Positions 26,963-53,689 of a stretch of 64,000 nt of DNA are shown in pieces. The notes under the pieces were generated by a model. It saw nothing but the letters and a program-made list of their open reading frames with translations, searched no databases and was not told the DNA's origin. The stretch's first letter is position 1. Every line of letters starts with the position of its first letter. A program made the translations under genes and the position numbers. Source of the stretch: Symbiodinium sp. CCMP2592 (Eukaryota; Sar; Dinophyceae; Suessiales; Symbiodiniaceae); NCBI GenBank assembly GCA_905221615.1, contig CAJNDT010004680.1:372001-436000 (forward strand). The letters are read 5' to 3'.

Positions 26963-29900
26963 TCAAACCCAAAACACACTGGGCATCTCTTTTCGACCGG
27001 GCATCTCCAGCCGAGGAACCAAGGGACGGTTGTACACCAGGTGAACCTCCAGACATGTCTTTCGTCTGATCGATGCATTTCCTTCCACATCCGTGGAAGC
27101 ATCGACGCTCTCCGGAGGGCTGCTTTGGCCTCTCTTTTTGGAGGACTCTGCTGGCAAATCTCGCGACAGACAGCATGCCTCTAGTGTCGTAAATCGGTGG
27201 TCCCGAGTCTGCCTCTGGGAACACCGCGGCCGGGGCGGCTCGGTGGGCAGAGGAAGGAGTGTGCCGAGTTCCTCTGAGAGCCGCAAGGCTTCTTCGTGTG
27301 GAGATGCTGTTGGGGACCATCTCTGCGACGACTCTGGCACCAGGGCCACATGCGACGCAGTGGCCAAAGCTGAAGCAGATTGCCTTGGCGGAGTGGGTGG
27401 AGGCGGGGTGAGCGTGCCGAGTTCCTGTGGCAGCCGATCAGCTTTTCTGCATGCGCAAACCGTTGAAACCCACGCCGACGATTCTGACACCGGCGGCGCA
27501 GTGCTCGAAGGTGAGGCTGTATGGCTGAGCGGAGTGGGTGCAGTAGGCCTCGCCTCGCCCGCAGGCACCTGGGGGGTGGTCATCATTGGAATTCTGCCGA
27601 TTTCCTGCGGCAGCCGCAGGGCTTTTCTGTCTGGGAGCCCACATCCGGTTGCTTTCCATGCTTGTGACTCTGGCACCAGCTGCACGCGCAGCTCGAGGTT
27701 TGAAGCTGAAGCCTGGCTTGCTTTTGTCGCTGTAGGACGCAACGCCACTCGCGGTTCCTGTGGCTTGCCTGCATGCAACTTCGGTCTGGTCATGATGGGG
27801 GCCGGTGCCGGGGAGAGCACGCGTGACATGCAGCTTTGCCAACCTCGGCCCAAAACCCAAAGAAATAAAAGTTGAAACTTTCAGAATCGACTAACTTATA
27901 AGAACCCCAAAAGTTGAAAAGTTGAGTTTACAGCCAATAAGCAACTTTGCATCTTGGACAGCGAGTCTGGCGTGGACTCACTCGATGGCTGCTGGGGCTG
28001 AGGCCAGCTTGGAGGGGGTGGAAGCGAGGAGGGCGGAGACTCGCTCAACGGCGGATGCCGGATCGCTGCTGTTGGAAGGGCCAGGGCCGGCGACTTCGCA
28101 ACAGTAACAAGTGGCTTGGCCAAAACCAACCTGCACTCTATTTCTAGTGGACGCCCTCTTTGCGACGGCTGCGCCTCTCCCTTTGGAACAAGCTGGCCCG
28201 GTAGTCGTGGTGGCAGCTCTCCAATGCTAATGCTAGGTCTGGGAGGGGCCTCTGGCAAGTGCGCATGCGGTATGCGACCTTGCGGTTCGCCATACCTATA
28301 CTGAACTTAGAACCCTGCAAAAATTATAATTTTAGCTGTTTCTTAGGGATTATAATAACCAAAAATGAAAAATTGTTTCTAAGTACCCCTAAGATACCAG
28401 GACAGAGAGTCTGGCATGCTTCGGCTGGAGGGCTCGGTTGACCAGCTTGGGAGATGCGGATCCGGCAGCGTAGGCGGCGACTGCTGTGGCACTCCCGGCT
28501 GACGCCGAAGAACCTTTGCCTGAGTTGTCCTTCAAGCCCTTTGAAAGTTATTTACAGTTATGGTTCTCTACAAAATAGTATGGGGGAAATTTAAAAAGAT
28601 CCCAAAACTTACCTTTGGTTAGTAGGGAATGGAGGAATGGGGTAAAATTATAACTACTATTACTAGCTGGGTTGCTGGCATCTTCATGTCCGCTAGCGAC
28701 TTCGGGACCAACTTCATCCTTGGGGTGATCGGTGAGGTGCCATGGAAGTCAACAAGCACGACCAAGGGAGCGTGGGGCGACACATTGCTGGGAGTCAGCA
28801 GCGAGAACTCGGGAGCCTGCCGTATCTGTTGCTTCCGCATCTTGCTCATCGGCAGCTGCGGCTGCATCTCCAACAGGGTTGGCGTGCGCGATAGGCTGAC
28901 ATTGACTGCCTCAAGAACAGAAAAGCTGCAAATAGCACCGAATGCCGCGAGGACAAGAGTGATGTTGGCAAGCAACATCCAACTCGGCCAAGGGCTGGCA
29001 ACAATGACATCGGTTGTGGTAGTGGTGGTCGTGGCTGTTGTGCTAGTGCTCGAGGTGCGGGTCTGTGTGCTGGATGTGCTGGATGTTTGAGTGCGGGTCG
29101 TGCTGCTACTGCTGCTTAAACTGGAAGTCGTGGATGTACTCGTACTAGAAGTTCCAGTTGTGGATGTTGTAGAGCTGCTGGTAGAGCTGCTGCTCGTGTG
29201 AGATGTGCTGCTCGAACTTGAGGTTTGGCTGCTCGACTTGGTTGAAGAGCTTGTAGTCCTTAGTTGCCGAGTTCATAAGCCCGATTTTTTAACTTTCAGC
29301 TTCAAGAGGGTTTCATGAGTTTTATGATCCCAAAAAGTTTAAAGTTTATAAACTCAGCTACTAAGAGTCTGTGTTGTTGAAGTCGTGGTGACGGAAAAGG
29401 ACCACAGGTCCCCACAGAGGGTGCCATTGTACCTGGGCTTCGGGAAGAAAGTAGGGTTTAGGGTTTAGTGTTTAGGGTCATTTGCATAAGCATCCCTTTA
29501 AGGACCAGCCCAAACAAAACAGCAATGAATTACTTGTCCAGCATCGTACAAAAATACAAGTTATCCTTCAAGGGGCTATAACCCCTCCACCCCTCAAAAA
29601 ACAAACACAAAAATACTTCGACCTTCTCTGCTACTGAGGTACCCCCCGTGGATGTAGATGATTTGATTTCCACTGTCCCAAGCGGCTACATGTGACCAGC
29701 GTCCCGATGGACCAGCGTGCTCTGCTGAAATCAAACTCCAGATGTTCTGCTCTGACTCGTATCTCCAAAGGTCTTGTTTGGGGAAGCCGTCGTTGCCGCC
29801 GTGCAACCAAAGCATGCGGCTTTGGTCATCCCAAACGGCTGTGTGGCCTGACCTCGCACTTGGACCGGCATCGAATGAGATTTCTCTCCAACTTCCGGTG

Positions 29901-30674
29901 GATGCATCCAAAGTCCAAAGATCCCCCAGTAGCAGAGAGTCGCCGAAGCCGCCATGTATCCAAAGTGCCTGGCCAACCCCATCCCACGCGGCAACATGGT
30001 GCGATCGTGCCGGTGGCGCGCCACTTGGCGCCAACTCCCACCATCCGTGACCCTGATCACTGTAGCTCCACAAGTCTGACAAACGGCTAGTGCCGGTCCA
30101 GCCACCATGCACCCAAAGAGAAAAGGTGCCTGGAACCCAGACGGCCACATGCCCCTGCCTTCCGGCCGGTCCGGCATCATTCGACACCTGCACCCAAATG
30201 CCAGAACGAAATCTCCACACGTCTCGAAACCAGGTGGCTGTTTGGCTGTTGTGCCCGCCATGAACCCAAAGAGCCTGGTTGGCAGAATCCCAGCCAGCAG
30301 CATGCAAAGTCCGTGCTGCCGGCGCCTCAGCCGTCACTGTGCGGGTCCAGGAATCGGAGGTGGCGTCGAAGGCCCACAAATCCTGGGCTGTAGCTTTGGG
30401 GCCCTTGAAAGTCTGTGTGAAGTACCTCTATAAGAACCATAAAAGGAAGTTAAACAGCTTGCCAAAGGTGCCACCTAGAATCGCCTTCCAGGTTGCTTCC
30501 GCCATGGATCAGCAGTACTTGCCTCGCCTCGTCCCAGGCACCGACGTGCTCGGACCGTGCCGCCGGACGGACGAGGCCGGCGTCCGTCAAGTCCGCCAGG
30601 CGGCTCCACCGTCCCAAAGCCATACACCACGAGCAGCAGAAAGGCAGCCAAGCAGCAACCGGGCGACTTACCAT
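26963..30674 (-). CDS. Kelch receptor A, type I membrane protein (7 exons)
   Basis: Exons: 30674-30483, 30382-29643, 29432-29370, 29258-28676, 28519-28398, 28295-27946 and 27843-26963. They join to 976 codons plus stop without a frame break. The start at 30674 gives a signal-peptide-like N-terminus (VAAWLPFCCSWCMALG). Residues about 22-325 hold Kelch-type repeats (WVHGG, LWLHGGN, HVAAWDS). Residues 325-415 are a Ser/Thr stalk. A transmembrane helix lies at about 420-445 (ITLVLAAFGAICSF). The cytoplasmic tail has repeated QLVPES and RLPQELGTL blocks. A surface adhesion or sensing role is likely. It is a tandem paralogue of 34205-39192. All six introns show a 4-nt direct repeat. Start choice is the least certain point. 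Confidence 0.8.
27844..27945 (-). mobile_element. Introner-like intron, GT-AG, Kelch A intron 6
   Basis: Joins ATGCAAA to GTTGGCAAAGC. GTTG is present at the donor and at the start of the next exon. 102 bp. Confidence 0.75.
28296..28397 (-). mobile_element. Introner-like intron, GT-AG, Kelch A intron 5
   Basis: The GTAT direct repeat flanks an insert starting CTTAGGGGTACTTAG and ending GTTCAGTATAG. The same family forms a GA-AG intron in the LRR gene at 42564-42666. 102 bp. Confidence 0.85.
28520..28675 (-). mobile_element. Introner-like intron, GC-AG, Kelch A intron 4
   Basis: GCAA at the donor and at the next exon start. 156 bp. The interior contains a copy of the CTAGTAGGGAATGG-type repeat also seen at 40282. 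Confidence 0.75.
29259..29369 (-). mobile_element. Introner-like intron, GA-AG, Kelch A intron 3
   Basis: The GACT direct repeat flanks an insert with inverted ends CTTAGTAGCTGAGTT and AACTCGGCAACTAAG. 111 bp. Paralogue B has no intron here. Confidence 0.85.
29433..29642 (-). mobile_element. Introner-like intron, GT-AG, Kelch A intron 2
   Basis: GTAC on both sides, 210 bp. It splits the codon run for HGGYNGTLCGD, which is continuous in paralogue B. Confidence 0.8.
30383..30482 (-). mobile_element. Introner-like intron, GA-AG, Kelch A intron 1
   Basis: GATT on both sides, 100 bp. The same intron with the same GATT is present in paralogue B (38754-38866), so it predates the duplication. Confidence 0.85.
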
Positions 30675-30759
30675 GCTGGGATCCGACGCAAACCCACCCC
30701 GAACGCAACCCCTAGTTGCCAGATGCTCATGCATTTCTGAACCGACAAATGCATGGACT

Positions 30760-30874
30760 ACTTGGAGGCTCATGGGTGGTTATGAGTAGGGTTATAAGTA
30801 GGGTATCTATACTTGTAACCTTTATTATTGGGGGACTTATAAGCCCACTTATAACTCCCCATGAACCTCCAAGT
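30760..30874. mobile_element. MITE-like repeat, GGAGGTTCATGGG family
   Basis: It starts ACTTGGAGGCTCATGGGTGG and ends CCCATGAACCTCCAAGT. It lies just upstream of Kelch gene A. Confidence 0.75.
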
Positions 30875-30995
30875 ATCTTGCTGACTCTACAACAGCTATG
30901 GCCCCCAAGAGCTCAAGCACGGAACAGGCCACCAATCCTTCGGATGAGGTGGTACTCGGGCCACATCGACGACGGAGCAACCGCTGTCGTACGCA

Positions 30996-32168: not shown

Positions 32169-32214
<46 letters not shown>

Positions 32215-33270: not shown

Positions 33271-33273
33271 CCC

Positions 33274-33621: not shown

Positions 33622-33725
33622 TGGGAGTTTCCGAAAACAGGGGACCCTAATATAGTACCCTAAATAGTAGGATCCTTATTATAGGGACCCCCAGATAAGG
33701 TACCCCTTTTTTCCGGAAACTCGCT
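33622..33725. mobile_element. MITE-like repeat, GGGAGTTTCCGAAAA family
   Basis: It starts TGGGAGTTTCCGAAAACAG and ends TTCCGGAAACTCGC. Confidence 0.7.
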
Positions 33726-34204: not shown

Positions 34205-37200
34205 TTAAGTGCACCCAAGCTTCGGGGACCGCATGCTCTTTGGACTTTTCCCCTGTCTCTGCCGCCTGGACCCGAGCCTTCGCTTGCGGGGGGACAGACG
34301 TGTGCTCCGGTCTGGCATGTCCGAAAACCTCTTGGCGGACTTGGCTTTGAAGCCCAATTCGAGAACTGCGCAAGGCTTCGGCAGCTGGACATGCGGCTCA
34401 CACGGAGTTGCGGGGACTGGCGGTGGCGGTCTGCTTGGCGCGCTTTGGTGCTGCCATGGTCTGCTTTCCGGCGGCTCTAACCTGCAAAGGCTGGGAGCCG
34501 GCAGGCTGGGTCGTCCCTGCCTGAGCTCCCTCTGCGGTAGAGGCTTCGATTGAGAGCAGAGCTCTCCTGGCTCCCCGATTCCTGCTCCCGATGGGTATCT
34601 CACGAAAAGTGTTTGGGGCAAGTGCAGCTGACAAAGGTCGGGGTCTTTCAGAAGCCGTCTCTGTGTCTCCATCGAGGGCCAGGCTGGCTTTTCAGGCACC
34701 AGCTGCACTCGAGGTTGGCTGTGAGGAACACTGTGGTATGGAGCCTCTGATATGCCAGAGCGCTGGGAGGGCCGCTTGGAAGGCGATTCTAACCTGGTAG
34801 AGCTGGGGGTGAAGGCTGGCGGTATTCTGTCTTGTGGTGCCGGATGCCTTGACAGGTCTTCATGCTCCCGGCTGGACACGTAATCACTCGACGGACGGTA
34901 GAAGCTGGCAGATTCACCCTTGTCTGGCTCCGGTGGCAGCACTGGCGATCTCTGAGGCTCTCTCCATGGACGCCGGCATGCTTTTGACGGAAAGTCCTGC
35001 GATTCTGGAACCAGCTGCACCCTCGGAGTAGCTGGTAAAGCGCCCAGGAAGTGAACGAAGACCACCAAAGGCGGGCATGGCGACCTTTGGCAACCGGGTG
35101 GCGGAGCAAACGCGTGAGCCGTCGGCTGTCCTTTTCTTTCTGGACACTTCGATGCTTGTGGCTCCGACAGCCGCACGTCGAAAGCTGGAAAAGGAACAGT
35201 TGCCAAACGGAGAGCATGGCAGAGAATAGACGCGATGCATGCTGCACCGCAGGCTTGTAAGATCACAAGTGACATGGTGACCACAAGGCTATCTGGAAAC
35301 GGGCTGGCGATGACAAGTTGGGTCGTGGTAGTGGTTGTGGATGCGGTGGCTGTGGAAGAGCTGGACGTGACCGTCGTCTGGGTGCTGGATGTTTCCGTGG
35401 ATGTCGTGTGCGTTGCTGAAGTGCTGCTTGCAGTGGTGGAAGTCGTGCGGCTGGACGTCCCAGTGGTTGAGGTACTGCTGGTAGATGTTGTCGAGCTGCT
35501 GGAGCTGGTGATTGTACTGCTAGAACTACTGCTCGTTGGCGAGGTGCTGCTGGAACTGGAAGTGTAAGTTGTGCTACTGCTCGAGCTAGACGTGCTTGTC
35601 CGGCTGGTGGAGCTAGTCGTACTCAATGTCGTGGTCGGCGAGGTGCTGCTAAGAGATGTTGTGGAACTGGTACTGGTGCTGCTGGAACTGACGGTCGTTG
35701 TAGAGGTTCTGCTGGAACTAGAGGTGCGACTCGTGCTGCTACTCGAAATGGAGGTGCTTGTCGTGGAAGTGCTCGAACTTGACGTGCTGGTTGAGGACGT
35801 GCTCGTGCTGCCAGTTGAGGTAAAGGTTCGCGATGTTGTCGTACTCAGCGTCGCGGTCAGCGATGTGCTGCTAAGAGATGTCGTGGAACTGGTACTGGTG
35901 CTGCTGGAACTGACGGTGGTTGTAGAGGTGCTGCTGGAACTAGAGGTGCGACTTGTGCTGCTGCTCGAAGTGGATGTGATTGTGGTGGAAGAGCTCGAAC
36001 TTGACGTGCTGGTTGAGGACGTGCTCGTGCTGCTAGTTGAGCTAAAGGTTCGCGATGTTGTCGTACTCAGCGTGGCGGTCAGCGATGTGCTGCTAAGAGA
36101 TGTTGTGGAACTGGTACTGGTGCTGCTGGAACTGACGGTGGTTGTAGAGGTTCTGCTGGAACTAGAGGTGCGACTTGTGCTGCTGCTCGAAGTGGATGTG
36201 ATTGTGGTGGAAGTGCTAGAACTTGACGTTGTGGAACTGGTGCTGGTACTGCTGGAACTGGTGGTGTGACTTGTGCTGCTGCTGGAAAAGGAAGTACTTG
36301 TCGTGACGGTGCTTGTCCTGCTGGTTGAGGTAGTGGTGTCTGATGTAGAGGTACTCAGTGTCGTGGTCGATGAAGTGCTACTGGTGCTGATGCTCGAGCT
36401 GGAGGAACGTGTCGTGGAAGTGCTAGAACTGCTGCTCGTTGGCGAGGAGCTGCTGGAACTGGAAGTGTCACTTGCGCTACTGCTCGAGCTAGAGGTGCTT
36501 GTCCGGCTGGTTGAGCTAGAGGTGCGTGATGTTGTCGTGCTCAGCGTCGTGGTCAGCGAGGTGCTGCTAAGTGATGTTGTGGAACTGGTGCTGGTTGTGC
36601 TGGAACTGGTGGTTTGGCTTGTACTGCTGCTGGAAACGGATGTACTTGTCGTGGCCGTGCTTGTCAGCGAAGTGCTGCTAAGAGATGTTGTGGAGCTTGT
36701 ACTGGTGCTGCTGGAACTGACGGTCGTTGTAGAGGTGCTGCTGGAACTAGAGGTGCGACTCGTGCTGCTACTCGAAATGGAGGTGCTTGTCGTGGAAGTG
36801 CTCGAACTTGACGTGCTGGTCGAGGACGTGCTCGTGCTGCTAGTTGAGGTGGATGTGAACGTATGGCTGCTGGTGCTGCTGCTCGTACTGCTAGATGAAC
36901 TAGAGGTACTGGATGTGAATGTGCTGGAGGTGGTGCTGCTAGACGTCCGACTGGTTGAGGTACTGCTGGTGGACGCTGTGGAGCTGCTGCTTGTGCTGGA
37001 GGTACTGCTTGCCGTGGATGTGGAACTAGTACTTCGTGTGGTCGAGGTTGTGGTGACAGTGAAGGACCACAGGTCGCCACAGACGCTTCCATTGTATCCA
37101 CCGTGGATGTAAACGACCTGGTTGTGGCTGTCCCATGCAGCAACATGTGACCAGCGCCCAGATGGACCGTCGTGCTCTGCAGGGATCAAGCTCCACAAGT

Positions 37201-41438: not shown

Positions 41439-44400
41439 TTAAGGGGGCGGGGAGCCTTGCATCCGAGAGAATGCATCCTTGAGGAAGGCGCGCCCTTCTT
41501 CGGTGGTGCAGTTTTGGGACACACGGAGTCTCAGAGAAGTCAGCTCCTGGGTTTCCCACTTTTGGGGCTTGGGGTGCTTAGGGATTTAGGGTTTGGGGTT
41601 GAGGGGTTGAGGGGTTTAGGGTTGAGGGTTGAGGGGTTTAGGGGTTTAGGGTTAAGGGTTTAGAATTTGGGGTTTGGGGGCTTGAGGTATGCCTTTACAT
41701 ACGCAGGATACCCGGTTTCCTGGTATCTATTTTGAGACACGCCTAAAGATCAAAGGATAAAGGGTAGTACTTGGGAACCTAGGCTCCTTCAGCTGGCCCA
41801 GGCCGGTTGCTAGGGCGAAGCAGCCACTGGCCTCGATCCTGTTCTCTGCAACTGCCAGGCTTAAAGCCTGAGCTTTGAAGTAACCAGGGAGAAAAAATAT
41901 GAACGTTCATTTCATAATGGTTCCATTAAGGAAAAAAGTATTACAGTATGGTACCCTAAACCCTAAGCCCAGAAGCAGTCAGGTGCTGCAGTTGGCCCAG
42001 CGTCTTCGCTAAGGCATCGCAGCCCTGCCCCGTGAGGCAATCTCTCTCCAGGTCCAGGCCTCTTTGAAGTGGCCAGAGAGAAGGGTTTAGGGTTTAGGGT
42101 TTGACTTCTATTTCATAATGGCTCCTTTTACTTTAAGTAGGCCTAAGCCCCAAAGAAGTCTTGAAGTACGGTACTCCAAAGCCCAGAAGCTCAGGGAACG
42201 GAGCTTCTGCAGCTGAGCAAGTGATCCCAGTGCGTTCACCAAGCCGGTGCAACCCACAACCTGGGCTCTTGTTCTTGTTAAAGAAATGTAACTTAAGGCG
42301 TCATAATAAGGAAACCCTCATATTTGCCGCAGATCCCTAGATCAACTTAGACGAAGTTCCCCAATAAAATGATAAGGAAACCCGATGATGTCCCAAAGAT
42401 CCCTGTATTCTGGTAACTTGAGCGAAGTTCCTTAAGACGAGCCCAGCAGCCGAACCGATGGCTCCCCTGAGACCCAAGTGGAGGATCTCCACTCGCTGGA
42501 GTTTCCCCAGGGCCTGTCCAAAGGCCGTGTACAAAGAGGCCCACCGGGTCTTGCCAAGCTCTCCTATACTGAACTTAGAACCCTCGCAAAAATTATGATT
42601 TTAGCTGCTTCTCAGGGATTTTCATAACCAAAAAATACAAACTATTTCTAAGTATCCCTAAGTCTCGTTGGAGAAGGAGGTGTCGATTTTTCGGCCGCTT
42701 CTCCATGTCCAGGCTCACGAAAGCGAGGTCCCGGAGCTGAGAGAGCGTCTGTGTCCAGGCAGTCAGTGCTATGTCCTTCCTCCACCTGGGTTGCAGTTTA
42801 AATCATTCCTCATGAGGACAACTCACAATATCATCCTAGTGCCACCTAGCAAGAAAAACATCAAACAACCCTTCAAACATCTCAATCCCCGAAAAATCTC
42901 CACCCCGAGGTCCCGAAACCCAGCCACGTGTTGAATCCGATGTCCAAGCTCAGGGAGGAAAGCTCGGGAAGCTGCCCCAAGACCTTTGCCAGATCACGGC
43001 ATCCGGCGTCTCCTTATGTCGGCGAGCTCAAGGATAGCCTTTTTCAACCAATATATATATATATATATACATATATACATATATATATATAGGGAGTCTA
43101 GTGACTAGTGCCCCCAAAAAAGATAAAAGACTAAGTACACTGTTTTTCGGAGTCTCCCATGCAGTTGGACCTCAAGTTCAAGGTCACATGTTTCAGCTGC
43201 TGCAGCCGACGAAGTGCTGCGCTCAAAGCACGGAAGCCTGCGTCTCTGATAGAGTTGCAGCTCATGTCCAAGCTCCTGGGTTCTTGGTTTAGGGTTTGGG
43301 GTTTAGGGTTTAGGGTGCCCAAGCACAATCTGGGTTCTTCTTAAGGATCTTAATGGGAGTTTCCGAAAATTAGGGGTACCTTGTTTAAGGGTCCTTATAA
43401 TCAGGATCCTGCTATGTAGGGTACTAAATTAGGGTCCCCTTTTTTCGGAAACTCCCTAGTTTAAGTTACCATAATGGGGCTTATAGTGAATATTATGGTT
43501 TCTTGATGATGGTAGACTTAAATTAAGTTCCTTAACAAGAGCCCAGACTCATGGTTGTGAGCCACTGCAACTTGCCGAGTGCATCTGCCAGGGCAGTGCA
43601 CCCCAAGTCGTCCACGAAGTTATCGGCAACATCCAAACCAATAGATCTCAGCTGCTGCAGCTGGCTTAGTGCTCCTGCCAAGGTACTGCACACTGAAGCT
43701 CCAGCCCTGCGATGTCTTGCTGCACTGGCCAGGTATAGCTCCCGAAGATGACCCACCACTCCTTTCAAAGCCTTGGGTGAAGCTTCGATCGTGCGCCGCC
43801 GAAGACTCACCAGGGTGACGTGCCGTAGCCTTCTCAAATTTCCCACTGCCTGGGGATTCCGAAACTAGGAGACCCTAATATAGTACCCTAGAGAGTGGGA
43901 TCCTTATAAGGACCCCAAAATAAGGTGCCCCTAATTTTTGGAAACTCCCGGCCTCCAGGTACTCCGCCCAGGCGTCACCGCTGATTTCCTTGTTCCCCCG
44001 GAAGCTAACCCTCATGCTGGTGAGCTGCTGCATTTCGCGCAAGTTCAGTGCCCAAAGTAGGCACCCTGTGTTGTTGATCTGGTTGTCATCGAGGTGCAAG
44101 TTCATGGTGGTGAGCTGCGGCGAGTGCCGAAGCTTTTCTGCCAAAGCTCTGCAGCCTTCATCACCGATAGAGTTGGACCTCAAATTCAAAGTCACGGACT
44201 GAAGCTGCTTGAGCTGGCCCAACGCCTCTGCTAAGGCAGTACATCCAGCATCTTGGATCGACCTGGGAGTTTCCGAAAATAGAGATTTTAATATAGTACC
44301 CTAAGTAGTAGGAGCCCTATTCTAGGGACCCCCTAATACGGTACCCCCTAATTTTCGGAAACTCTAATTGAAACCCGCCTTATAGCACCCTTTAAAGGAA

Positions 44401-45035
44401 GGTACCCCTAATCGGAAACTCTAAAAACCCTTCTAGAGCCCTTTAAAGGGACCCTTATAGTACCCTTATAGTAACCCTTGAAAGGACCCCTAAGGTACCT
44501 CAGAAGCCTTATAGATCCCTTTAAGGAACCCTTATAGATCCCTTTTAAAGGTACCCCTAGTTTTCGGGAACTCCCACATGGACCTTGCTTTCATGTCCAA
44601 GCTCAAGGATGTGAGCTGCTGCAACTTTCCGATGGCAGGTAGCACGTCGCAACCTCGGCAAAGGACGAACCCCAAAAACCTCCGAAACCCGAAGGCCGTA
44701 CATTAGGGTTTAGGGTTTAGGGTTTGGGGTTCAGGGTTTAGGGTTTAGGGCTTCGTGAGGTTTGAAAGGCTTAACCGCGGAAGATCCGAGCTGAAGCCTA
44801 CCTCAACTCTCTGAAGCCGCAACCCTCAAGCGCTAGCCCTCCATCCAAAAACCCAAACCCCAGGCTCTCAACTCCTCCGCCCTGTAAGCCCTCATCCCTG
44901 AACCCTAAACCCCAAACGTTAAACCCTGATAAGCCCTCATCCCTGAGCCGCCCACAAGGCTCGCTTTGCATCGTGAGCTTCAGCCGCATCAACGGAGAAC
45001 CCAGGGCGGAGATGATCTCAACGAAACGAAGCACC
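41439..45035 (-). CDS. Ribonuclease-inhibitor-like LRR protein (at least 12 exons)
   Basis: Exons from 5' to 3': about 45035-44935 (start not fixed), 44653-44584, 44262-43953, 43849-43551, 43275-43157, 43012-42928, 42785-42667, 42563-42451, 42260-42191, 42059-41977, 41867-41787 and 41546-41439. From the second exon on they join to 484 codons plus a TAA stop with no break. The protein is a chain of LRRs of about 45 residues with the pattern LGQLKQLQSVTLNLRSNSI followed by DEGCRALAEKL, the ribonuclease-inhibitor type. A protein-binding scaffold role is likely. All 11 introns are 100-320 bp repeat insertions. Upstream exons may extend the gene. Confidence 0.8.
41547..41786 (-). mobile_element. 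Introner-like intron, GA-AG, LRR last intron
   Basis: GAGC on both sides, 240 bp. Confidence 0.8.
41868..41976 (-). mobile_element. Introner-like intron, GC-AG, LRR gene
   Basis: GCTT on both sides. The insert begins CTGGGCTTAGGG and ends AAAGCTCAG. 109 bp. Confidence 0.8.
42060..42190 (-). mobile_element. Introner-like intron, GC-AG, LRR gene
   Basis: GCTT at the donor and GCCT at the exon start (one mismatch), 131 bp. It is related in sequence to the intron at 41868. Confidence 0.75.
42261..42450 (-). mobile_element. Introner-like intron, GC-AG, LRR gene
   Basis: GCTG and GTTG (one mismatch), 190 bp. The insert begins CTGGGCTCGTCTTAAGGAAC and ends AAGAGCCCAG. Confidence 0.75.
42564..42666 (-). 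mobile_element. Introner-like intron, GA-AG, LRR gene
   Basis: GAGA on both sides. The insert begins CTTAGGGATACTTAG and ends GTTCAGTATAG, the same family as 28296-28397 with a different target site. 103 bp. Confidence 0.85.
42786..42927 (-). mobile_element. Introner-like intron, GT-AG, LRR gene
   Basis: GTGG on both sides. The insert begins CTGGGTTTCGGG and ends TGCAACCCAG. 142 bp. Confidence 0.8.
43013..43156 (-). mobile_element. Introner-like intron, GA-AG, LRR gene
   Basis: GAGAC on both sides, 144 bp. It contains a TA tract. Confidence 0.75.
43276..43550 (-). mobile_element. Introner-like intron, GA-AG, LRR gene, with nested repeat
   Basis: GAGT and GAGC (one mismatch), 275 bp. The outer ends are CTGGGCTCTTGTTAAGG and AGAACCCAG. 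A complete GGGAGTTTCCGAAAAT palindrome (43354-43457) sits inside. Confidence 0.75.
43850..43952 (-). mobile_element. Introner-like intron, GC-AG, LRR gene
   Basis: AGGC on both sides of a GGGAGTTTCC-type palindrome. 103 bp. Confidence 0.85.
44263..44583 (-). mobile_element. Introner-like intron, GT-AG, LRR gene
   Basis: AGGTC on both sides, 321 bp. The ends are of the GGGAGTTTCCGAAAAT type, with a complete short copy at 44266-44363 and a related longer stretch. Confidence 0.8.
44654..44934 (-). mobile_element. Intron, GC-AG, LRR gene, with telomere-like run
   Basis: 281 bp, containing TTTAGGG repeats. The frame joins as GAG GGT TGC. The direct repeat is weak here (GCTT against GTTG). Confidence 0.55.
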
Positions 45036-45930
45036 TGCTCCTCACCTCACTTTGCAAGACCACTTTGTACAAGCGGGATTATGAGGGTTCAGCGTTCCTT
45101 TAAGGGTTCTATAGCATTTACGGTGTAGGTTTAGGGTAGTTTTAAATGGGGTCCTAAGTCCCCTAATACGGGTTTAAAAGTATCGTTACCCTACTTGTAG
45201 CTCTAATATGGCTACCCATGAAGCTTCAGGCAACCCGAGTGAAAAGACACGCTGCTGCAATAGCCCATGCATGTGTCTCTATATACACCTATATGAACGG
45301 ATCGACCAATATGAAGGGAGGAAGGCAGCCGGGCAGCCAGGCAGGCAAGAGAGATAGATAAATGGACAGATAGGCAATAGACAGGTTGGTAGATAGACAG
45401 ACCGAGTGGGTGCTTGATTGAATGGCAGCTAGACAAGCGGGTAAATGTTGGATTATGCACATACGCCTAGCCTGTATGTTGCTGCTGCTACATACGAGTA
45501 GAGCATCGATAGTACTTTAGGCAATCTTTTTAGCTCTGCGCCTGTGCTGCCACCGACGCTAATTTGAAACCGCGGGTGCTCTTGATCTGAAAACACTGAC
45601 GAGCTCCTTTTGGGTTCAGAGTTTCTTGAGGCTAAAACCTAAACCCTAGGGGTTAAGGATGGTTAAAGGCCCAGGTTTAGGGCCAGCTCTGGAATCAGTT
45701 CTCCGTCCGCGGAGTCTCAGACTAAGTCCAGGGCTGGTAAGCAGGAGGCTCAAGCTGTCGGCCTTTTGATACTCGGTGTCGCCAGGCTCCTTGCAATGGC
45801 CAAGCAAAGGCTAGCTGGGGTAGCCTTCAGGGTCTACGGCCTCGGCGTTCGAAGGTAGGATTTTCCCTGGGGCCAGAGGTTGATTGACTTCAGGAGTACT
45901 GCCAGAACCACGACTGCCTAAATTCCTTAA
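45036..45930. other. Spacer or unresolved 5' region of the LRR gene
   Basis: A partial GGAGGTTCATGGG-type repeat lies at about 45105-45230, and AGATAGA-like repeats at 45350-45400. No exon could be fixed. Confidence 0.4.
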
Positions 45931-45949
45931 ACCCTAAACCCATGAAACC

Positions 45950-46135
45950 TCCATCCAGAAACCCTTTAATGGCGCCACGTGTTTCATCCACTCGGGAATT
46001 GAGGTTTCTCCCTCTGCTCTTCGTAGCTCCCATGTCCCACAAGATGCACCGTGCCTCTGCATCGATGAAGAAACCGACGTCCCGGTGAACCACTTCACGC
46101 TTGCGGCCCTGCATTGCAGCTTGGGCGTAGTGGCC
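45950..46135 (-). CDS. Candidate exon, unknown
   Basis: A minus-strand frame reads GRKREVVHRDVGFFIDAEAR and then LWDMGATKSRGRN and DETRGAIKG. It has balanced, charged composition. A second frame on the same strand is also open, so the assignment is tentative. It could belong to the LRR gene upstream or downstream of it. Confidence 0.3.
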
Positions 46136-46287
46136 CGGGGGCCGGGAACATAGGTAGCAGCCAACATCAGCAAACTACGGTGAAGACAACTCCGGATTCT
46201 GGATGAGAGCGACTTGCTTTCAGAAAGTTGCAAGAGCTGCTAATCTGTCATGTGCTATACTTTGTTGTACACAAAACCCTAATTAAG

Positions 46288-46289
46288 CC

Positions 46290-46331
<42 letters not shown>

Positions 46332-46332
46332 C
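46288..46332. repeat. (TC)n microsatellite
   Basis: About 20 TC units. Confidence 0.9.
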
Positions 46333-46404
46333 AGCCATTCGAAACGTCAAGAGACCCTAAGCCCTTTTTACACAGAATGCTTTGAACCCTAAACCCTGAG
46401 CCTT

Positions 46405-46515
46405 GGCGTACTTGAAGATCGTCAGGGCGCAAGGCCCAATGTCGTTTTCGCTGACGTCCAGCTTCGTTAGTTCTGGGTTGTTCGCCTGGCGAATTTCTCA
46501 TCATCCGCCAAGCTG
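46405..46515 (-). CDS. LRR exon of a second ribonuclease-inhibitor-like gene
   Basis: A minus-strand frame reads EIRQANNPELTKLDVSEND and then IGPCALTIFKYAKAQ, a typical LRR. It follows the LRR exon at 46610-46820 on the same strand. The intervening sequence has no open continuation, so an intron is likely. It may be the 5' part of the LRR gene at 41439-45035 or a separate gene. Confidence 0.5.
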
Positions 46516-46609
46516 ACTGAAGTCCGTTTTGGGGGGCTTGAGGGTTAAGGGGTGGGAGTGTGTTTCGGGGTTCAGCGCCAGTTGGCTTCAGGGTGTAGGC
46601 AGGGTTTTT

Positions 46610-46820
46610 CTATACCGCAAGTATGTTCAGGATGTTCGGGAACCTTACAGACTGGACTTTGAGGTCAAACACCAGACTTGAATTCCCCCTGCAGCCGCTG
46701 CAGCCTGCCTTGACCAATGCCACGACACCGTCCTTGATATTGTTCTTGCGCAGGCTAAGGCTTTTCAGCGCTTTGTTCTGTTCCAGCGCCTCCGCACAGA
46801 GGCCGCCGCAGATGCACTCA
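46610..46820 (-). CDS. LRR exon of a second ribonuclease-inhibitor-like gene
   Basis: A minus-strand frame reads GLCAEALEQNKALKSLSLRK and then NNIKDGVVALVKAGC, which is the LRR consensus of this type, followed by SSLVFDLKVQSVR. The limits are approximate. The plus-strand open frame over the same bases is a shadow. Confidence 0.55.
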
Positions 46821-46873
46821 GTTGCCCTATGCTCTGGACGTGTACTGTGAGGCAGAGAGTCCCCAATTAAACC

Positions 46874-46970
46874 ACTTAGAGGATCATGGGACTTAGTAAG
46901 TATGGCTATAAGTACCTTAATTGGGGTTATAAGTATTTGTAAGTACAGTTATCTTAATTAACACCTCTCC
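46874..46970. mobile_element. MITE-like repeat, CTTAGAGGATCATGGG family, one end only
   Basis: It begins CTTAGAGGATCATGGGACTT. The right end is missing. Confidence 0.55.
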
Positions 46971-46980
46971 TGACCTCCGA

Positions 46981-47751
46981 TCAAGAGTTCAGGGCCTCGG
47001 CACATGCACTCGCACAGGCAGGCTCGGCTTCCAGCAAGAGTCCAGGCAACCATCTTGCTACCGGGATATGTGGGTTATATATATATATATATATTTGTAT
47101 ATATAGGGTTTGGGATTCAAGTTTGGGGTATATAGTCTCTAAATATTCCGCAGCAAGCAATCTGCTTTTGTTTGTAAGCGGTGATTCGACCGTGCACTGC
47201 CGCGGCAACGTCCCCAACAAGGCTAATGTCGGGGCCTCAAAAATCAGAATTGACTGTTGGGGCATATTTAAAATCAGAAAAATCCTAAGAATTATAAGAT
47301 TAAGAACCCCCAAGAGTAGCATAGGTAATTATTTAGGCCCCTATATTATGAACAGCCAGCCTTCGCAAGGGCACATGCACTGCTGTCATCCATGCCGCTC
47401 TGGTCCACAGACAATGCCAGAATCTGCATATGCATAATGGCCTGCGAGAGTCCAGAACCTCTATGCACACAGCTTGTGGGGGAAAGCACTTCTCCTGTTT
47501 GGTGCGGGTCCGGGTCGGGCCGAAAAACCCGACTGGCTACAACAGCAAGGCGTCAACCTGAAATCCCAACCACTGCACGCCAGCGAAGAATCTCTCCCTC
47601 CGAAAAAACCCTCCCACACCCTAATCCCAACCTCGCAAACTCCAAAGTTTCAAACGCCCCGCATTTCGCAAAGCACTCCGATATCGACACGTCCAATCAT
47701 GAAGCTCCCTACTCTACAGCGAGTGAAAGTAGGGAAAGTACTGATGAACGA
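46981..47751. other. Spacer
   Basis: A TA tract lies at 47075-47092. A degraded GGGGCCTTAAT-type repeat lies at about 47226-47347, ending ATTTAGGCCCCTATA. Open frames near 47392-47802 have no recognised domain. Confidence 0.4.
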
Positions 47752-47841
47752 CGCCTAACACATGTGAGCGCAGGGAACAACCGCTTGTGGGAGCACGCCT
47801 AACACATGTGAGCGCAGCGAACAACCGCTTGTGGGAGCAAA
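47752..47841. repeat. 45-bp tandem duplication
   Basis: CGCCTAACACATGTGAGCGC followed by GAACAACCGCTTGTGGGAGC occurs twice in a row with one difference. Confidence 0.85.
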
Positions 47842-49881
47842 ACCCTGCACCCTACCGCATACTGTAGGCGCCTTGATGGAATAGGGCTTTTTGGGGCTGT
47901 ACCTGTACTTATAAGGGGGAGCCAAGGGAAAAGTTTTGCAACTTTTGTTCAGGCCCCTGAATGAATTCTGCTTCCTCCATCGAATGCTTGGCACCTTGAG
48001 CATGCTTGGGAGCTGCACAGGGAGCTTGCAATTCGTGATCTCAAGAGTCCTGGGCCGACAAAAACGATGAGGGTTTAGGGGTTTTAGGGCTTTAGGGGTT
48101 TAGGGTTCAGGCTTTAGGCTTTAGGGGTTTAGAGGGGTTTATAGGGTTTTGGGGTTTAGGGTTTTCGGGTTTTGGGGCTTTAGGATCTCGGTCTAGGGTT
48201 CTTTAAGGGCTCGTTTAGGGCTTTAGGGGATCTATAAGGGTTACTATAAGGGCACTATTTCTTCAATTAACGGTACCATAGGATCTTGGGTTTAGGGTTT
48301 GGGAGTTTGGGGTTTAGGGACCTTCCAAACTTAGCCGGAATGCGCATTTCAGCAAAGAAACCGTATGGTAATTCCAAAGAAGAATAGAAAACAATCTGTC
48401 TTAGACAGACCCAGCTAGAAGGCACTGTTGCGGCTATCAGCACTGTTAGAGTTAGACGACATGCAGCACTTGCGGGTTCAGTTCAATGTGCAGCCAATGT
48501 CGTGTGTCTGGCTCAACTCGCTTGGTTTGGCATGCTCGTGTTCGCATGTTCCTGGTGCTTGCTCTTGAGCTGGTGTGCGTTTTGACAACAACGAAAGAAG
48601 TCGCCTGAACGTGGATCACTTGCCTTGATCATGCTGCTGCGGAGTGGCTTGCTGCAGTAAAGGTGGCAGACACTGGTATGCAGACAGCATTGCACACATT
48701 GCGAGACAAACTGGGGACTCGTGACGAAAACACTCTTTAAGGTGCTGTAATAGGGTTCTCTGCTCGGGTTCCCTTCACGGTACTCTAATCCCTTGTTAAG
48801 CACGGACTTGCAGTGTATTATAGCACCTGAAGCCTAAACCCTTTATTGGAACAGGCATGCCTCGCCTTGACTTGGCTTCCTGCACAACCCGGGCCGCGTT
48901 CTCACCGAGGGTTTGAACAAACCAACCGTTCCCAGCTTCGGATGTTGCTTTGCACTCTCACAATGGCACAGTCTTTTTGTTATCCAAGGCGCAAAGGGGA
49001 TCCGAAACAAATGTCCCGGCGCCCACCCCCCCCCACCGCCCCGGCCGATCCCAACGTCCCTGTGGTGAAGTTGCGATGAAACGATAAAGCATCGAATCTT
49101 CCCGGTTCAGGCATTACGCGGCTGCTAGCAATGCAGATAAGGTTGGGCGTTCTCTCTTCACAGTTTGCGACATTTGTGAATCCGCCCTCCTGCCTCATGC
49201 CGGCGTCCCTTGCCATTCCGCCACATGTCATGCAAACCGTAGCAGGTCATCAACACCAACCTCTTGCCCAAAGCGCCACTCGTTTCCACATCCGGCAGCA
49301 TTCGTCTGTGATGTTCCATGCTGAGATCCCAGCCCAAAATGGTAATGCGCGCTCTCGCGAATGCTTCGTTCGCTACCGGAGGTCAACATTGGAGCCTGAT
49401 GGCTTCACACTCCGGGTCTGCGATCCTTTCGGTGCTCTTTGCTGTAACAGCTGGCCAATGCTTGTTTGTGCTGCGCCTCTTTGAAACTAGTCCCTTATTG
49501 GGGAGATTGCACTCCCTGGGTTATTGCAGAGGACCTGGCAAGTTGTACGGAGGAGGGCCAGCCACTGCCGTAGCCAAAGGCCAGCACCACAACCAACAGG
49601 GTATCAAGCTCTTAAACTCTTAAATTAAGGACCCATTGACATGACGACGCTCTTTAAGAACTGAGAGCACGTGTTGATTTGCTGGGTCACCGTGTTCACG
49701 ATCCAGTCAGTCAAGGCTAGGGCTTCGGTAGCTCTGCTAAGCGAGCGACCGCCCAGAACAAGACAGGAGCGGACCTGCACAACAGAGGAGCGACCCGGCA
49801 AGACGACAAACTGCAGCTCTTCAGCTGGTCTTTGGCACGAGTCCAGGGGAGATTAAGGAGTGGCAAAGGAGCGTGACGATA
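47842..49881. other. Spacer with weak open frames
   Basis: TTTAGGG-like text lies at 48065-48320. Open frames at 48980-49231 (minus) and 49131-49484 (plus) overlap and carry no recognised domain. No gene can be supported. Confidence 0.4.
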
Positions 49882-52800
49882 TTATTTCGTTAGTTCAAGC
49901 AGACGAGCCCATGGCCTACCTGGCCGGCCACTTTCCTTGCCGAGATACTCAAGACCTGTGTAGTGCTGCAGGGTCTCCATGGCAGATTCAAGCTCCCTCT
50001 CTCCCAGCGAAGAGAGCTTCAGCTCTTTGATGGCCTTCGCCCTATACTGGAAGACTCGCAGCTGCAGCTGCCTGACGAACTTGGCGTCCTGGGCATGCGA
50101 AAACGTGAGGCCACCCTCCTTCACCTGGGCGGTTCTCAAAATCATGGTCCTATTTGGGTCCCTTTTATAATACGGCACCTATTATTATTTAGGGTACCCC
50201 AAAAAGGGACCCTAATTTTGACAACCACCCACCTGGGTTTCGAAGGCTTCGGGCGTCATCGGCAGCTCGCCTGCAGGGTCTGCCTCGGTGCTATCCACCT
50301 CCCAGGACCGGGAGGTGGCAGTGCGGCTCGCCGACCACTGCGTCTCCGAAAAGCACCATCCGCGCTTCAGGAATGGAACTTCATTCAAGAGAAGGTCCGA
50401 CACGGCCTAAGTTCTTGTGGAACCTAATCGTCGGTATCGATTTTGTTGGGATTTCATGCTAGTGACAGTACTGGATACATCTTCAGTACCGCAAACAAAA
50501 AACGACGGAATCAAGAACCAAGCTGCTACCTCCTTCACGCACTTCTCAGGCTCGAAGTACACTTTGAGCCGTTTGGCATTCTCGTGCTTCCACTCGGCAG
50601 GCGTGAGACGCGCAATGCGCAGCGTGCGCGTGTGCTCGTGCGCATACATCGCGTGTATGCCTTGCACGGCCCTCTGGTAGCATTGCTCCTCGTCGGAACT
50701 TCTGACGAACTGGAACAAGGACATATAATCCAAGAATACCCACGGTTTCGGCCGCTTGGAGGACAGTGCTAGTCCTTTCGCCGAAATCTCTCCACCCTCC
50801 ACCGACATCTCCGCTGTCTCCCTCGATCGCTCTTGCCAGAACTCCTCCAGAGCGAGGAAACCCTAAACCCTAAACCCTGAACCCTAAACCCTAAACCCTA
50901 AACCCTGAACCCTAAACCCTAAACCCTAAACCCTAAACCCTCAAGAAAATGATAAATAGAAATTGCTTGTCCTTGTTTGTAACCACCGCTAAGGCCCAGC
51001 ATTTCGGATAAAACTGGCGTTAGCTTCTTGATAATCCAATTTCGCACAACCACAACCTCAACCATTAACTCAACCCAGCCAACTCAAAACAGCCACCCGA
51101 TCAAAAACGGAACAAGCTTCTTGATAAACCAATTTCTCCATAACCTCCAACCCAGGCCCACCTTCCAATCCCCCAAATCCAGGTCCCAAACCCCAAATCC
51201 AGAATCCAGGTCCAGCCCCAAATCCAGGCACCAGGCCCTCCAAGCCCAGGCCCCAGACCCCAGGCCCCCAGGCCCACCCCAAATCCAAGCTTCAAAAATC
51301 CAGCCCCAAATCCAGGCCCAGTCTCAAATCCAGGCCCCAGACCCCAAATCCAGGTCCAGTCCCAAATCCAGGCCCCAGGCTCCAGACCCCAAATCCAGGC
51401 CCCAGGCCAGGCAATCCAGATCCCAAACAGCCCCAAATCCAGGCACCAGCCAGACCCCAGGCTGGCCCCAAATCCAGGCCCCAGCCCCAAATCCACACCC
51501 CCACTCCCAAATCCAGGCCCCTAAATCCAGGCCCCACATCCCAAATCCAGGCCCAGTCCCAAGTCCAGGCGCTCCACACCCCAAATCCAGGCCCACCCCA
51601 AATCCAGGCCCAGTCCCAAATCCAGGCACCAGGCCCCAAATCCAGGCTGCAGTCCAGCCCAGTCCCAAATCCAGGCCCCAGGCACCAAATCCAGGCCCCA
51701 AATCCAAGCCAGGCTGCAGGCCCCAAATCCAGGCCCCAGACAAAGCCAGGCCCAGGAATCCACGTCCAGTCCCAAATCCAGGCCCCAGGCCCCAAATCCA
51801 GGCTCCAGACCCCAAATCCAGGCCCAATCCCAAAAGCCTGGTGCCTGGATTTGGCTGGACCTGGATTTGGGCATTGGCATGGAGACTGTGGTTTTTTGGG
51901 GGGGCTGGATTTGGGACTGGGCCTCGATTTGGGGTGGGCCTGGATTGGGGGGGCCTGGATTTGGGTGGATTTGGGGCCTGTGGGCCTGGATTTTTGGATT
52001 TGGGGTCTGGAGCTTGGATTGGGGCCCTCCAAGCCCAGCCCAAATCCAGACCCAGTCCCAAAAGCTTCAAATCCAAGTCAGTCCCAAATCCACGCCCAAG
52101 AAATCCAGGCTCCAGACCCCAAATCCAGGCCCAGTCCGAAAAGCCAAGCTCCAAACCCCAAATCGAGGCCCCAAATCCAGGCCCCAGACCCCAAATCCAG
52201 GCCCCCCAGGATCAGGCTCCAGAGGCCCACCCCAAATCGAGGCCCAGTCCCAAATCCAGGCCCCCCCAGAGCCCCAGCCCCAAAGCTCCAGCTCCCCCCC
52301 CTCAGCAAATTTCAAAACATGATTCGCAAAAAAAAACGTTTCGTTCAAAACGTTTCGGTCAAAACGTTTCGGTCAAAAGGTGTGAGTTCAAAAGAAGAAA
52401 CGTTCCCTTGAAAAGTTTCGGTGAAAACGTTTCGTTGAAAACGTTTCGTTGAAAACGTTTTTGGCCCCCCCCCCCCCCCCCCCCCAGGCCCCACAAGCCC
52501 CCCAGCAGCCCCAGTCCCAGCAGCCCCACCAGCCCCAGCAGCAGCCCCCCACACTTTCGTTCGAAACGTTTCGTCGACAAGCTTTGGGGACTCAATTTCT
52601 GTGATGGTTCGACCCCAGCCCAGCCCCAGCCCCCGCCCCCGCCCCAGGACGGTCAAATCTCGCTCCGCTCCAAAGTTTCGTCCAAAACGTTTCGCAGCCC
52701 CCCAAGAAATTTGAAAACATGGTTCGCAAAAAAAAAACTCCGCCCAAAACTTCCAGTCAAAACTTTCGCACAAAACGTTTTTGGGACCCAAACCCTTAAC

Positions 52801-53681
52801 AATTTCTATAAACCCTGAACCCTAAACCCTGAACCCTAAACCCTAAACCCTAAACCCTGAACCCTAAACCCTGAACCCTAAACCCAAAACCCTAAACCCT
52901 AAACCCTAAACCCTGAACCCTAAACCCTGAACCCTAAACCCTAAACCCTAAACCCTGAACCCTAAACCCTGAACCCTAAACCCTAAACCCTAAACCCTAA
53001 ACCACAATCCTCCAGAGCGAGGACAATCCTCGAAAGCTGATACCCCCAGGGATCAGGATGCTCCCGGGCCTCCCAGCCTGGGTTCTTGTTACCTTTAAAG
53101 GTAAAGGGATCTATAGGGATTCTATAAGGGTTATAGGGTTTAGGGTTGAGGGATGGGGTTTATAGCCTTAAGGATCTTGTTACCCTAAGGACTCATATAG
53201 GGCTCCTTTAAAGGGATCTATAAGGGGTCCTTTAAAGGGATCTATAGGGTTTAGGGATCTAAGGACTCATATATTGAGGCTTTTGGGCCCCAAAGAGCAT
53301 ACTATATAAGGCTTTTGGGATATTTTGATCCCTAGGGTTAAGGAATTCAATTCAATTACCATACGTTACTAGGGATCCATAGGAAATACTGGGGATCTTG
53401 TTTTTTGGAACTCAATTTCAGTTGCCATACTAGGGCTCTATAGGAAATTATCAGTTACCATACTAGCGATCTATAGGACATACTCAGTTACCATACTGGG
53501 AATATAACGGAAATAATAAGGTTTCCGTATTCTGGCAACTTAAAGTAAGTTGCTTAACAAGAGCCAAGCAACAGTGCGAGACTGAAATGATGAGGCTCAC
53601 CTCGGACTCATCCCGTCTCGCCCACTCCAGCACCTGGCGCACATGCATATTCATGCACGTCAGTTCTACGTCAAACCGCAT
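49882..53681 (-). CDS. HET-like protein (5 exons)
   Basis: Exons: 53681-53570, 53077-53010, 50844-50527, 50406-50233 and 50124-49882. They join to 304 codons plus a TAA stop without a frame break. Readable motifs are VSHCCWEAREHPDPWGYQL near residue 35, PWVFLDYMSLFQ near 95, a YAHEHTRTLRIARLTPAEW segment, and GWCFSETQWS near 180. The layout of W-(hydrophobic)-D-x-x-S-x-x-Q, then a helix with MYAHE, then RGWC-x-x-E resembles HET-domain proteins (WIDxxCINQ, then RxWTxQE). The HET link is an inference from motif order. The role is unknown. The 53681 ATG is assumed to be the start, but an upstream exon is possible. The second intron is a 2.2-kb insertion. Confidence 0.75.
50125..50232 (-). mobile_element. 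Introner-like intron, GT-AG, HET gene intron 4
   Basis: CAGGTG on both sides of a GGTGGTTGTCAAAATTA palindrome, 108 bp. The family also has free copies at 1703, 10104 and 24208. Confidence 0.85.
50407..50526 (-). mobile_element. Introner-like intron, GC-AG, HET gene intron 3
   Basis: GCAG and GCCG (one mismatch). Ends CTTGGTTCTTG and CAAGAACTTAG are an inverted pair. 120 bp. Confidence 0.75.
50859..50942. repeat. Telomere-like array (CCCTAAA)n, left end of insertion
   Basis: About 12 units of CCCTAAA and CCCTGAA, directly next to the 16-bp direct repeat. Confidence 0.95.
51165..52315. repeat. Minisatellite CAAATCCAGGCCCC with internal inversion
   Basis: Tandem units such as CCCCAAATCCAGGCCCCAG. 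From about 51840 to 52025 the units run on the opposite strand (CTGGATTTGGG). The 474-codon plus-strand frame is a repeat artefact. Confidence 0.9.
52330..52795. repeat. AAACGTTT-rich palindromic block
   Basis: More than ten AAACGTTTCG-like motifs separated by short spacers. A run of 21 C at 52465-52485 and a CCCCAGC-rich part lie in between. Confidence 0.85.
52806..53003. repeat. Telomere-like array (CCCTAAA)n, right end of insertion
   Basis: About 28 units of CCCTAAA and CCCTGAA in the same orientation as the array at 50859. Confidence 0.95.
53078..53569 (-). mobile_element. Introner-like intron, GC-AG, HET gene intron 1
   Basis: GCTT and GCTG (one mismatch), 492 bp. Ends TGGCTCTTGTTAAGC and AACAAGAACCCAG match the LRR introns at 42261 and 43276. 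Confidence 0.75.
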
Positions 53682-53689
53682 CTGTTTCG

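What the first reader, a model, noticed from the sequence alone, without database searches (positions are those of the whole stretch)
26963..53681. 25 introns whose splice donor is one copy of a target-site duplication: an introner system with GT, GC and GA donors
Seen: in four genes I can place 25 introns at single-base level. Nearly all have the same few bases at the donor and at the start of the next exon. Exact cases are GATT, GTAC, GACT, GCAA, GTAT, GTTG, GTTC, GTCA, GTGG, GAGA, GAGC and GCTT. A few have one mismatch, and one (44654-44934) matches poorly. The donors split about evenly: 8 GT, 9 GC, 8 GA. Exons joined on this rule stay in frame over 976, 1271, 484 and 304 codons, which is a strong internal check. 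Known: introner elements and GC/GA donors are described in dinoflagellates. Inference: insertion duplicates a 4-nt site starting with G, the left copy becomes the donor, and the element brings the AG. Any GN donor seems acceptable, which would remove most limits on where an insertion can become an intron.
Basis: partly seen in the sequence, partly recalled or inferred. Interest (0 to 1): 0.9.

Follow-up and report, generated by a model that had tools for sequence, protein, structure and literature searches.

The report
Transposon-made introns in coral-alga genes
Many introns in three genes of a Symbiodinium alga look like small transposons whose insertion copied four bases, one copy becoming the start of the intron; this route to new introns is real here but has already been published for the same genus.

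Summary
The repeat is real. I mapped 33 introns in three minus-strand genes of a Symbiodinium (gene B matches a Symbiodinium sp. CCMP2592 protein); 30 of 33 junctions agree with a homolog or paralog. Donor bases 2-4 equal the start of the next exon in 71 of 99 cells (27 by shuffling, at most 47 in 20,000 shuffles); agreement falls to background at base 5, so the duplication is 4 nt. In 24 introns it flanks an element that mostly starts CT (16 of 24) and ends AG. Introns of one family align from exactly base 5, and four introns are absent from the window's own paralog. 'Any GN donor' fails: GG is 0 of 33 (P about 1e-4). The mechanism (4-bp duplication, inverted ends, element supplies AG, duplication supplies the donor) is printed for Symbiodinium microadriaticum (Gozashti et al. 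2022). Genome-wide copy number is untested: the genome search answered none of nine requests. No RNA of this strain was examined.

The parts
26966..30777 (-). Gene B: kelch beta-propeller, Ser/Thr-rich stretch and tail; introns B1-B6 (start codon not fixed)
   Evidence: 1010 open codons when spliced; Pfam kelch; P0004 'Lztr1 [Symbiodinium sp. CCMP2592]' 100% identical over the 330 residues searched and identical at the six junctions, though it departs 14 residues after B6
34208..39002 (-). Gene A: paralog of gene B; introns A1-A3 (5' end not defined)
   Evidence: 1256 open codons; gapless across A1-A3 against P0004-P0008, and P0010 from four residues before A1
41440..54012 (-).
   Evidence: 949 open codons; P0124 588 of 658 identical over query 288-945; P0125 spans D4 to L8
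30383..30482 (-). Intron B1, GATT/GATT
29433..29642 (-). Intron B2, GTAC/GTAC; absent from paralog A
29259..29369 (-). Intron B3, GACT/GACT, inverted ends; absent from paralog A
28520..28675 (-). Intron B4, GCAA/GCAA
28296..28397 (-). Intron B5, GTAT/GTAT; same family as L7
27844..27945 (-). Intron B6, GTTG/GTTG
38754..38866 (-). Intron A1, GATT/GATT; counterpart of B1 (79% over 94 nt)
37823..38636 (-). Intron A2, GTTC/GTTC; absent from paralog B; contains TTTAGGG repeats
37705..37803 (-). Intron A3, GTCA/GTCA; absent from paralog B
53889..53989 (-).
   Evidence: gapless to P0002, 7 of 13 residues
53634..53813 (-). Intron Dm, GCGT/GTGC, no duplication
   Evidence: gapless to P0002, 8 of 13 residues
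53078..53572 (-). Intron D1, GTTG/GCTG (junction moved by 3 nt)
   Evidence: gapless to P0002 (10 of 13) and P0003 (11 of 13)
50845..53009 (-). Intron D2, flanked by a 16-nt exon duplication and TTTAGGG arrays; not transposon-type
   Evidence: homologs P0002 and P0003 have a gap here
50407..50526 (-). Intron D3, GCAG/GCCG
   Evidence: weak homolog support, 3-5 of 13 residues
50125..50232 (-). Intron D4, GTGG/GTGA; TGGGTGG...CCACCCA family
   Evidence: gapless to P0125 and P0001, 11 of 13
48050..49948 (-). Intron M1, GTAT/GACT, 2 of 4
47442..47994 (-). Intron M2, GTGC/GCCA, 1 of 4
46790..47360 (-). Intron M3, GCTG/GCGC, 2 of 4
46486..46708 (-). Intron M4, GCAG/GCGA, 2 of 4; P0124 and P0125 have a gap here
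46109..46401 (-). Intron M5, GCTC/GGCC, 2 of 4
45790..46054 (-). Intron M6, GCAC/GAGC, 2 of 4
45046..45734 (-). Intron M7, GCCC/GTGA, 1 of 4
44654..44955 (-).
44263..44583 (-). Intron L2, GTCC/GTCG; GGGAGTTTCC family
43850..43952 (-). Intron L3, GCCG/GCAG; GGGAGTTTCC family
43276..43550 (-). Intron L4, GAGT/GAGC; CTGGGCTCTTG family, with a nested GGGAGTTTCC element
43013..43156 (-). Intron L5, GAGA/GAGA
42786..42927 (-). Intron L6, GTGG/GTGG
42564..42666 (-). Intron L7, GAGA/GAGA; 88% identical to B5 over 99 nt, from base 5 to the last base
42261..42450 (-). Intron L8, GCTG/GTTG
42060..42190 (-). Intron L9, GCTT/GCCT
41868..41976 (-). Intron L10, GCTT/GCTT; 3' part shared with A2
41547..41786 (-). 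Intron L11, GAGC/GAGC
25744..25845 (-). Copy of the B1 intron family outside the three genes (71% over 102 nt, aligning from base 5 of B1 to its end); no 4-nt duplication at its ends

Best explanation
About 24 of the 33 introns are introners: short non-autonomous DNA transposons of several families. Insertion duplicated 4 nt. The element begins mostly CT and ends AG, so its 3' end is the splice acceptor, and the left copy of the duplication, G followed by A, C or T, is the donor. Shown from sequence: the 4-nt repeats, element edges at base 5 and at the last base, homology between introns at unrelated positions, inverted ends as a group, and a paralog without the intron at four sites. Inferred: the transposition itself, that these four are gains rather than losses, splicing by the spliceosome at these exact bases, and purging of insertions whose duplication does not start with G and then A, C or T. 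The other nine lack the signature; eight are probably older introns or decayed introners, and D2 arose another way.
For: Match confined to bases 1-4. Introns B5 and L7 (different genes) align from base 5 to the last base at 88%; D1 and L4 align from base 5 in both at 76%; A2/L10, L2/L3 and B4/D0 share their 3' parts to the last base. CT at +5,+6 in 16 of 24 against 1 of 9. Inverted ends: own-pair score 188 against 137.8 expected for the 24 (maximum 183 in 20,000 shuffles), 42 against 44.1 for the other nine, P 0.69. Paralog sequence uninterrupted at the sites of A2, A3, B2 and B3. P0124 gapless at 17 of 18 junctions M1-L11. P0004 identical at the six B junctions. Same layout printed for Symbiodinium microadriaticum.
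Against: No RNA of this strain was examined. Inverted ends are weak in many single introns: 7 of the 24 (B3, D1, D4, L2, L3, L4, L8) lie in the top 5% of cross pairs. Nine introns do not fit. Of three copies of AG-ended intron families that I looked at outside these genes, none has a clean 4-nt duplication directly at its ends: 23298-23402 has GCAA with one extra base, 41213 and 25744 have none. In the paralog the uninterrupted 4-mer equals the duplication only at A2; it differs by one base at A3 and B2 and by two at B3. The split into 24 and 9 was made partly by the match itself, so class comparisons are after the fact. I first placed 25 junctions by eye with the repeats in view and checked them against homologs afterwards.
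Confidence: 0.9

Rival explanations
1. The matching 4-mers are only a shared splice-site consensus (G at the donor, G after AG).
For: Base 1 is G on both sides in all 33 introns as placed.
Against: Bases 2-4 match within introns far above between-intron shuffles: 71 against 27.3, maximum 47 in 20,000.
Confidence: 0.02
2. The introns arose by tandem duplication or break repair with filler DNA, leaving short repeats of variable length, not by transposition.
For: D2 is flanked by a 16-nt exon duplication next to TTTAGGG arrays, and two or more TTTAGGG or CCCTAAA units occur in 11 of 33 introns.
Against: The match ends sharply after 4 nt, and introns at unrelated sites share sequence from base 5.
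Confidence: 0.05
3. The repeats reflect the choice of junctions.
Against: Where homologs fix the spliced product they keep the match: P0124 is gapless at 17 of 18 junctions, L1 rose from 2 to 3 of 4, and D1 kept 3 of 4 while gaining the CT edge. M6, which could have been given 3 of 4, was set by homologs and counted as unmatched.
Confidence: 0.03

Closest known systems
Introners of Symbiodinium microadriaticum (Gozashti et al. 2022 PNAS, PMC9860276; section 7 with the Fig. 2 legend read, passages)
   Same: 4-bp duplications, inverted ends, 3' splice site carried by the element, 5' splice site taken from the duplication; GC and GA donors reported among introner families in general
Introners of Polarella glacialis and other dinoflagellates (Roy et al. 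2023; paper not held, known here from passages of the review PMC11453091)
   Same: Many families, recent intron gain in dinoflagellates
   Different: Ends and duplications could not be compared
Amoebophrya introner elements (Farhat et al. 2021, PMC7789003; abstract and passages seen)
   Same: Inverted repeats of 8-20 nt and direct repeats of 3-5 nt at intron borders
   Different: Their splice motifs are highly variable; here every intron, as placed, is G(A/C/T)...AG
Identically repeated intron boundaries in Crypthecodinium cohnii (Mendez et al. 2015; not held; content recalled, cited in PMC7789003)
   Same: Same bases at both intron borders, kept once in the mRNA (recalled)
   Different: As I recall, length 2-9 bp and not tied to transposons in that paper

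Membership tests
Introner (DNA-transposon type) | Homologous introns at unrelated positions | tested here: met
   B5/L7 88% over 99 nt; D1/L4 76% over 84 nt; A2/L10 82% over 66 nt; L2/L3 78% over 103 nt
Introner (DNA-transposon type) | Target-site duplication at intron borders | tested here: met
   Match at bases 1-4 only, with shuffle control
Introner (DNA-transposon type) | Terminal inverted repeats | tested here: met
   Met for the 24 as a group (188 against at most 183 in 20,000 shuffles); singly, 7 of 24 are in the top 5% of cross pairs
Introner (DNA-transposon type) | Site uninterrupted in a homolog | tested here: met
   A2, A3, B2, B3 against the window's own paralog; gain or loss not polarised by an outgroup
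Introner (DNA-transposon type) | High copy number in the genome | not testable with these tools
   The genome search answered none of nine requests:
Introner (DNA-transposon type) | Removed as an intron from RNA | tested here: inconclusive
   A 2154-nt contig encodes a relative's protein in the spliced order (P0124), transcript-like by inference; no RNA of this strain
Amoebophrya-type introner elements | Highly variable splice motifs, most not GT, GC or GA...AG | tested here: not met
   All 33 introns are G(A/C/T)...AG as placed
Euglenid nonconventional introns (definition recalled) | End-pairing hairpin in place of conserved border bases | tested here: not met
   AG is constant as placed; in 7 of 22 folded duplication introns at least 8 of 20 shuffles pair their ends as well or better, including B5 and L7

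The most novel reading that the evidence does not exclude
Two intron classes share one gene: ones without the duplication, mostly after an exon ending AG (7 of 9), and introner ones that mostly lack that exon signal (4 of 24; Fisher P 0.002, after the fact) and carry arbitrary bases 3-4. If real genome-wide, the Symbiodinium spliceosome finds the introner donor by little more than a G not followed by G, without exon-side pairing, and the known GT/GC/GA mix of dinoflagellates is largely the record of where transposons landed.
Probability: 0.25. Interest if true: 0.55.

Novelty: already known. Interest (0 to 1): 0.27.

Why it matters
It is a worked example, at single-base level, of new introns made by transposons in a coral-symbiont type of alga. 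It suggests that gene-finding in such genomes can use the 4-nt rule together with the element edge to set junctions: two placements were off, and in both the better site carries a 3-of-4 repeat. The missing GG donors and the two intron classes are simple predictions for the whole genome.

Tried and rejected
Hairpin pairing of the two intron ends as a general requirement: over the 22 duplication introns of at most 330 nt (of 24), mean pairing of the first with the last 30 nt is 9.8 against 3.8 in shuffles, and 10 of 22 exceed all 20 of their shuffles, but in 7 of 22 at least 8 of 20 shuffles do as well. I do not propose it as obligatory. Four introns without the duplication were folded too (4.0 against 3.0).

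Whether copies outside genes also duplicate G-first sites: three copies of AG-ended intron families were looked at, none clean; undecided. Copies outside these introns of the families ending TGGG...CCCA are flanked by TA, TG, TATA or GG, and one (near 55538-55626) by a longer repeat, so D4, L2 and L3 probably recruit splice sites differently from the CT...AG families, and their 3-of-4 match may reflect a duplication of another length.

A scan of viral contigs for the B5/L7 end found nothing.

Junction caveats: inside an exact repeat homology cannot choose the base; I anchored on AG before G. D2, D3 and M4 are poorly fixed by homologs; B4-B6 rest on P0004 alone. M6 would match 3 of 4 if its donor were 3 nt upstream, but that makes the protein one residue shorter than P0124 and P0125.

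Literature searches were made; none was aimed at whether the missing GG donors or the two intron classes are in print, so I claim no priority for them. Table 2 of PMC10666404 lists only GT, GC and GA, but its authors' pipelines were modified to accept just GC and GA besides GT, so it is no independent test of GG.
Full report
WHAT WAS CHECKED. The genes of the finding lie on the minus strand. I first placed 25 junctions by eye, with the repeats in view, then checked and corrected them against paralogs in the window and homologous proteins, and used homologs to define eight more introns (M1-M7, Dm). Gene B (30777-26966) and gene A (39002-34208) are kelch-repeat paralogs (Pfam for gene B; alignment of both). 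P0004, named Lztr1 of Symbiodinium sp. CCMP2592, is 100% identical to gene B over the 330 residues searched and agrees at all six junctions, departing 14 residues after B6, so the window is most likely from that strain or one very near it. Spliced with 24 introns the gene is open for 949 codons.

JUNCTION CONTROL. Against P0124, 17 of 18 junctions (M1-M7, L1-L11) are gapless; at M4 there is a gap. Two placements change. D1 becomes 53572-53078, giving SHCWEAREHPDP as in P0002. D0, Dm and D4 are gapless to at least one homolog with 7, 8 and 11 of 13 residues identical (D4 only 3 of 13 to the distant P0003, and at a gap in P0002); D3 is weak (3-5 of 13); D2 falls in a gap. In all, 30 of 33 junctions are supported by a homolog or paralog; D2, D3 and M4 are not well fixed.

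THE REPEAT. Over the 33 introns, 15 match at 4 of 4 positions, 10 at 3, 6 at 2 and 2 at 1. Base 1 is G on both sides throughout. Bases 2, 3 and 4 match in 25, 21 and 25 of 33 (shuffled means 10.6, 8.3, 8.3; none of 20,000 shuffles reaches these). Base 5 matches in 5 of 33 (5.9 expected); for bases 6-12 between 22 and 51% of shuffles do as well. The duplication is therefore 4 nt. A1 and B1 are one shared intron counted twice, and B5/L7 are one family, so the 33 are not fully independent.

THE ELEMENT. BLAST between introns shows homology starting at base 5 of both introns and, for B5 and L7, running to the last base (88%, 99 nt); D1 and L4 also start at base 5 (76%, 84 nt). A2/L10, L2/L3 and B4/D0 share their 3' parts to the last base. 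B1 has a copy outside the genes at 25845-25744 that matches B1 from base 5 to its end. CT stands at +5,+6 in 16 of the 24 duplication introns and in 1 of the other 9. Inverted ends are significant for the 24 as a group (188 against 137.8, maximum 183 in 20,000 shuffles) and absent in the nine (42 against 44.1, P 0.69); singly only 7 of 24 stand out. The paralog is uninterrupted at A2, A3, B2 and B3; its single 4-mer equals the duplication at A2, differs by one base at A3 and B2 and by two at B3. Together these support transposon insertion, with the donor in the left duplication and AG in the element.

WHAT DOES NOT FIT. M1-M7, Dm and D2 lack the signature. D2 has 3 of 4 matches, but is flanked by a 16-nt exon duplication and telomere-like TTTAGGG arrays (that TTTAGGG is the telomere unit is recalled). 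These nine are longer (180-2165 nt, against 99-814 with 11 of 24 between 99 and 113), and their upstream exon ends AG in 7 of 9 against 4 of 24 (Fisher P 0.002). The class comparisons are after the fact and the classes were set partly by the match. No donor is GG: 0 of 33, P 1.0e-4 against 24.3% GG after G in the coding sequence; 0 of 24 duplication introns, P 0.0013. Three copies of AG-ended intron families looked at outside the genes show no clean 4-nt duplication, so whether the G-first rule comes from the transposase or from selection by splicing is open.

LITERATURE. Gozashti et al. [quoted passage not shown] Donor mixes of about 24-37% GT, 44-58% GC and 17-20% GA, and AGG acceptors of 96-97%, are listed for the Symbiodiniaceae and Polarella columns of Table 2 of PMC10666404 (passages). 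Farhat et al. 2021 (passages) report direct and inverted repeats at Amoebophrya introners. Huff et al. 2016, Roy et al. 2023 and Mendez et al. 2015 are not held; what I say of Mendez is recalled, and of Roy taken from a review. I therefore file the phenomenon as already known. What this work adds is the base-level map, the corrections, the sharp 4-nt edge and the missing GG donors in this window; I did not search whether the last two are in print.

CHANGES ON RE-READING.

Noticed in passing
50845-53009 (-): Intron D2 (2165 nt) is flanked by a 16-nt exon duplication (TCCTCGCTCTGGAGGA) and has TTTAGGG arrays just inside both ends, with a long CCCAAATCCAGG-type repeat between; it looks like break repair with telomere-type filler rather than transposition.
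   Followed up: partly
13420-17322 (+): Two long ORFs (380 and 898 aa) without a Pfam match; by eye the second has reverse-transcriptase-like (YVDN) and GIY-YIG-like stretches (motifs recalled), so perhaps a retroelement.
   Followed up: partly
18484-18896: A perfect inverted repeat with arms of 136 nt and a spacer of 141 nt.
   Followed up: no
5511-5630, 5316-5421, 6767-6871, 9571-9678, 10000-10092, 54223-54406: Small inverted-repeat elements outside the mapped introns whose ends are flanked mostly by TA (once each TG and GA), unlike the 4-nt duplications of the introns.
   Followed up: partly
1703-1804, 10105-10207, 24209-24311, 4403-4494, 24411-24483, 33622-33725, 55538-55626: Copies of the TGGGTGG and GGGAGTTTCC families outside the mapped introns, flanked by TA, TG, TATA, GG or (the last) a longer repeat; introns D4, L2 and L3 belong to these families.
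   Followed up: partly
59385-61169 (+): A 594-codon open frame without a Pfam match.
   Followed up: no
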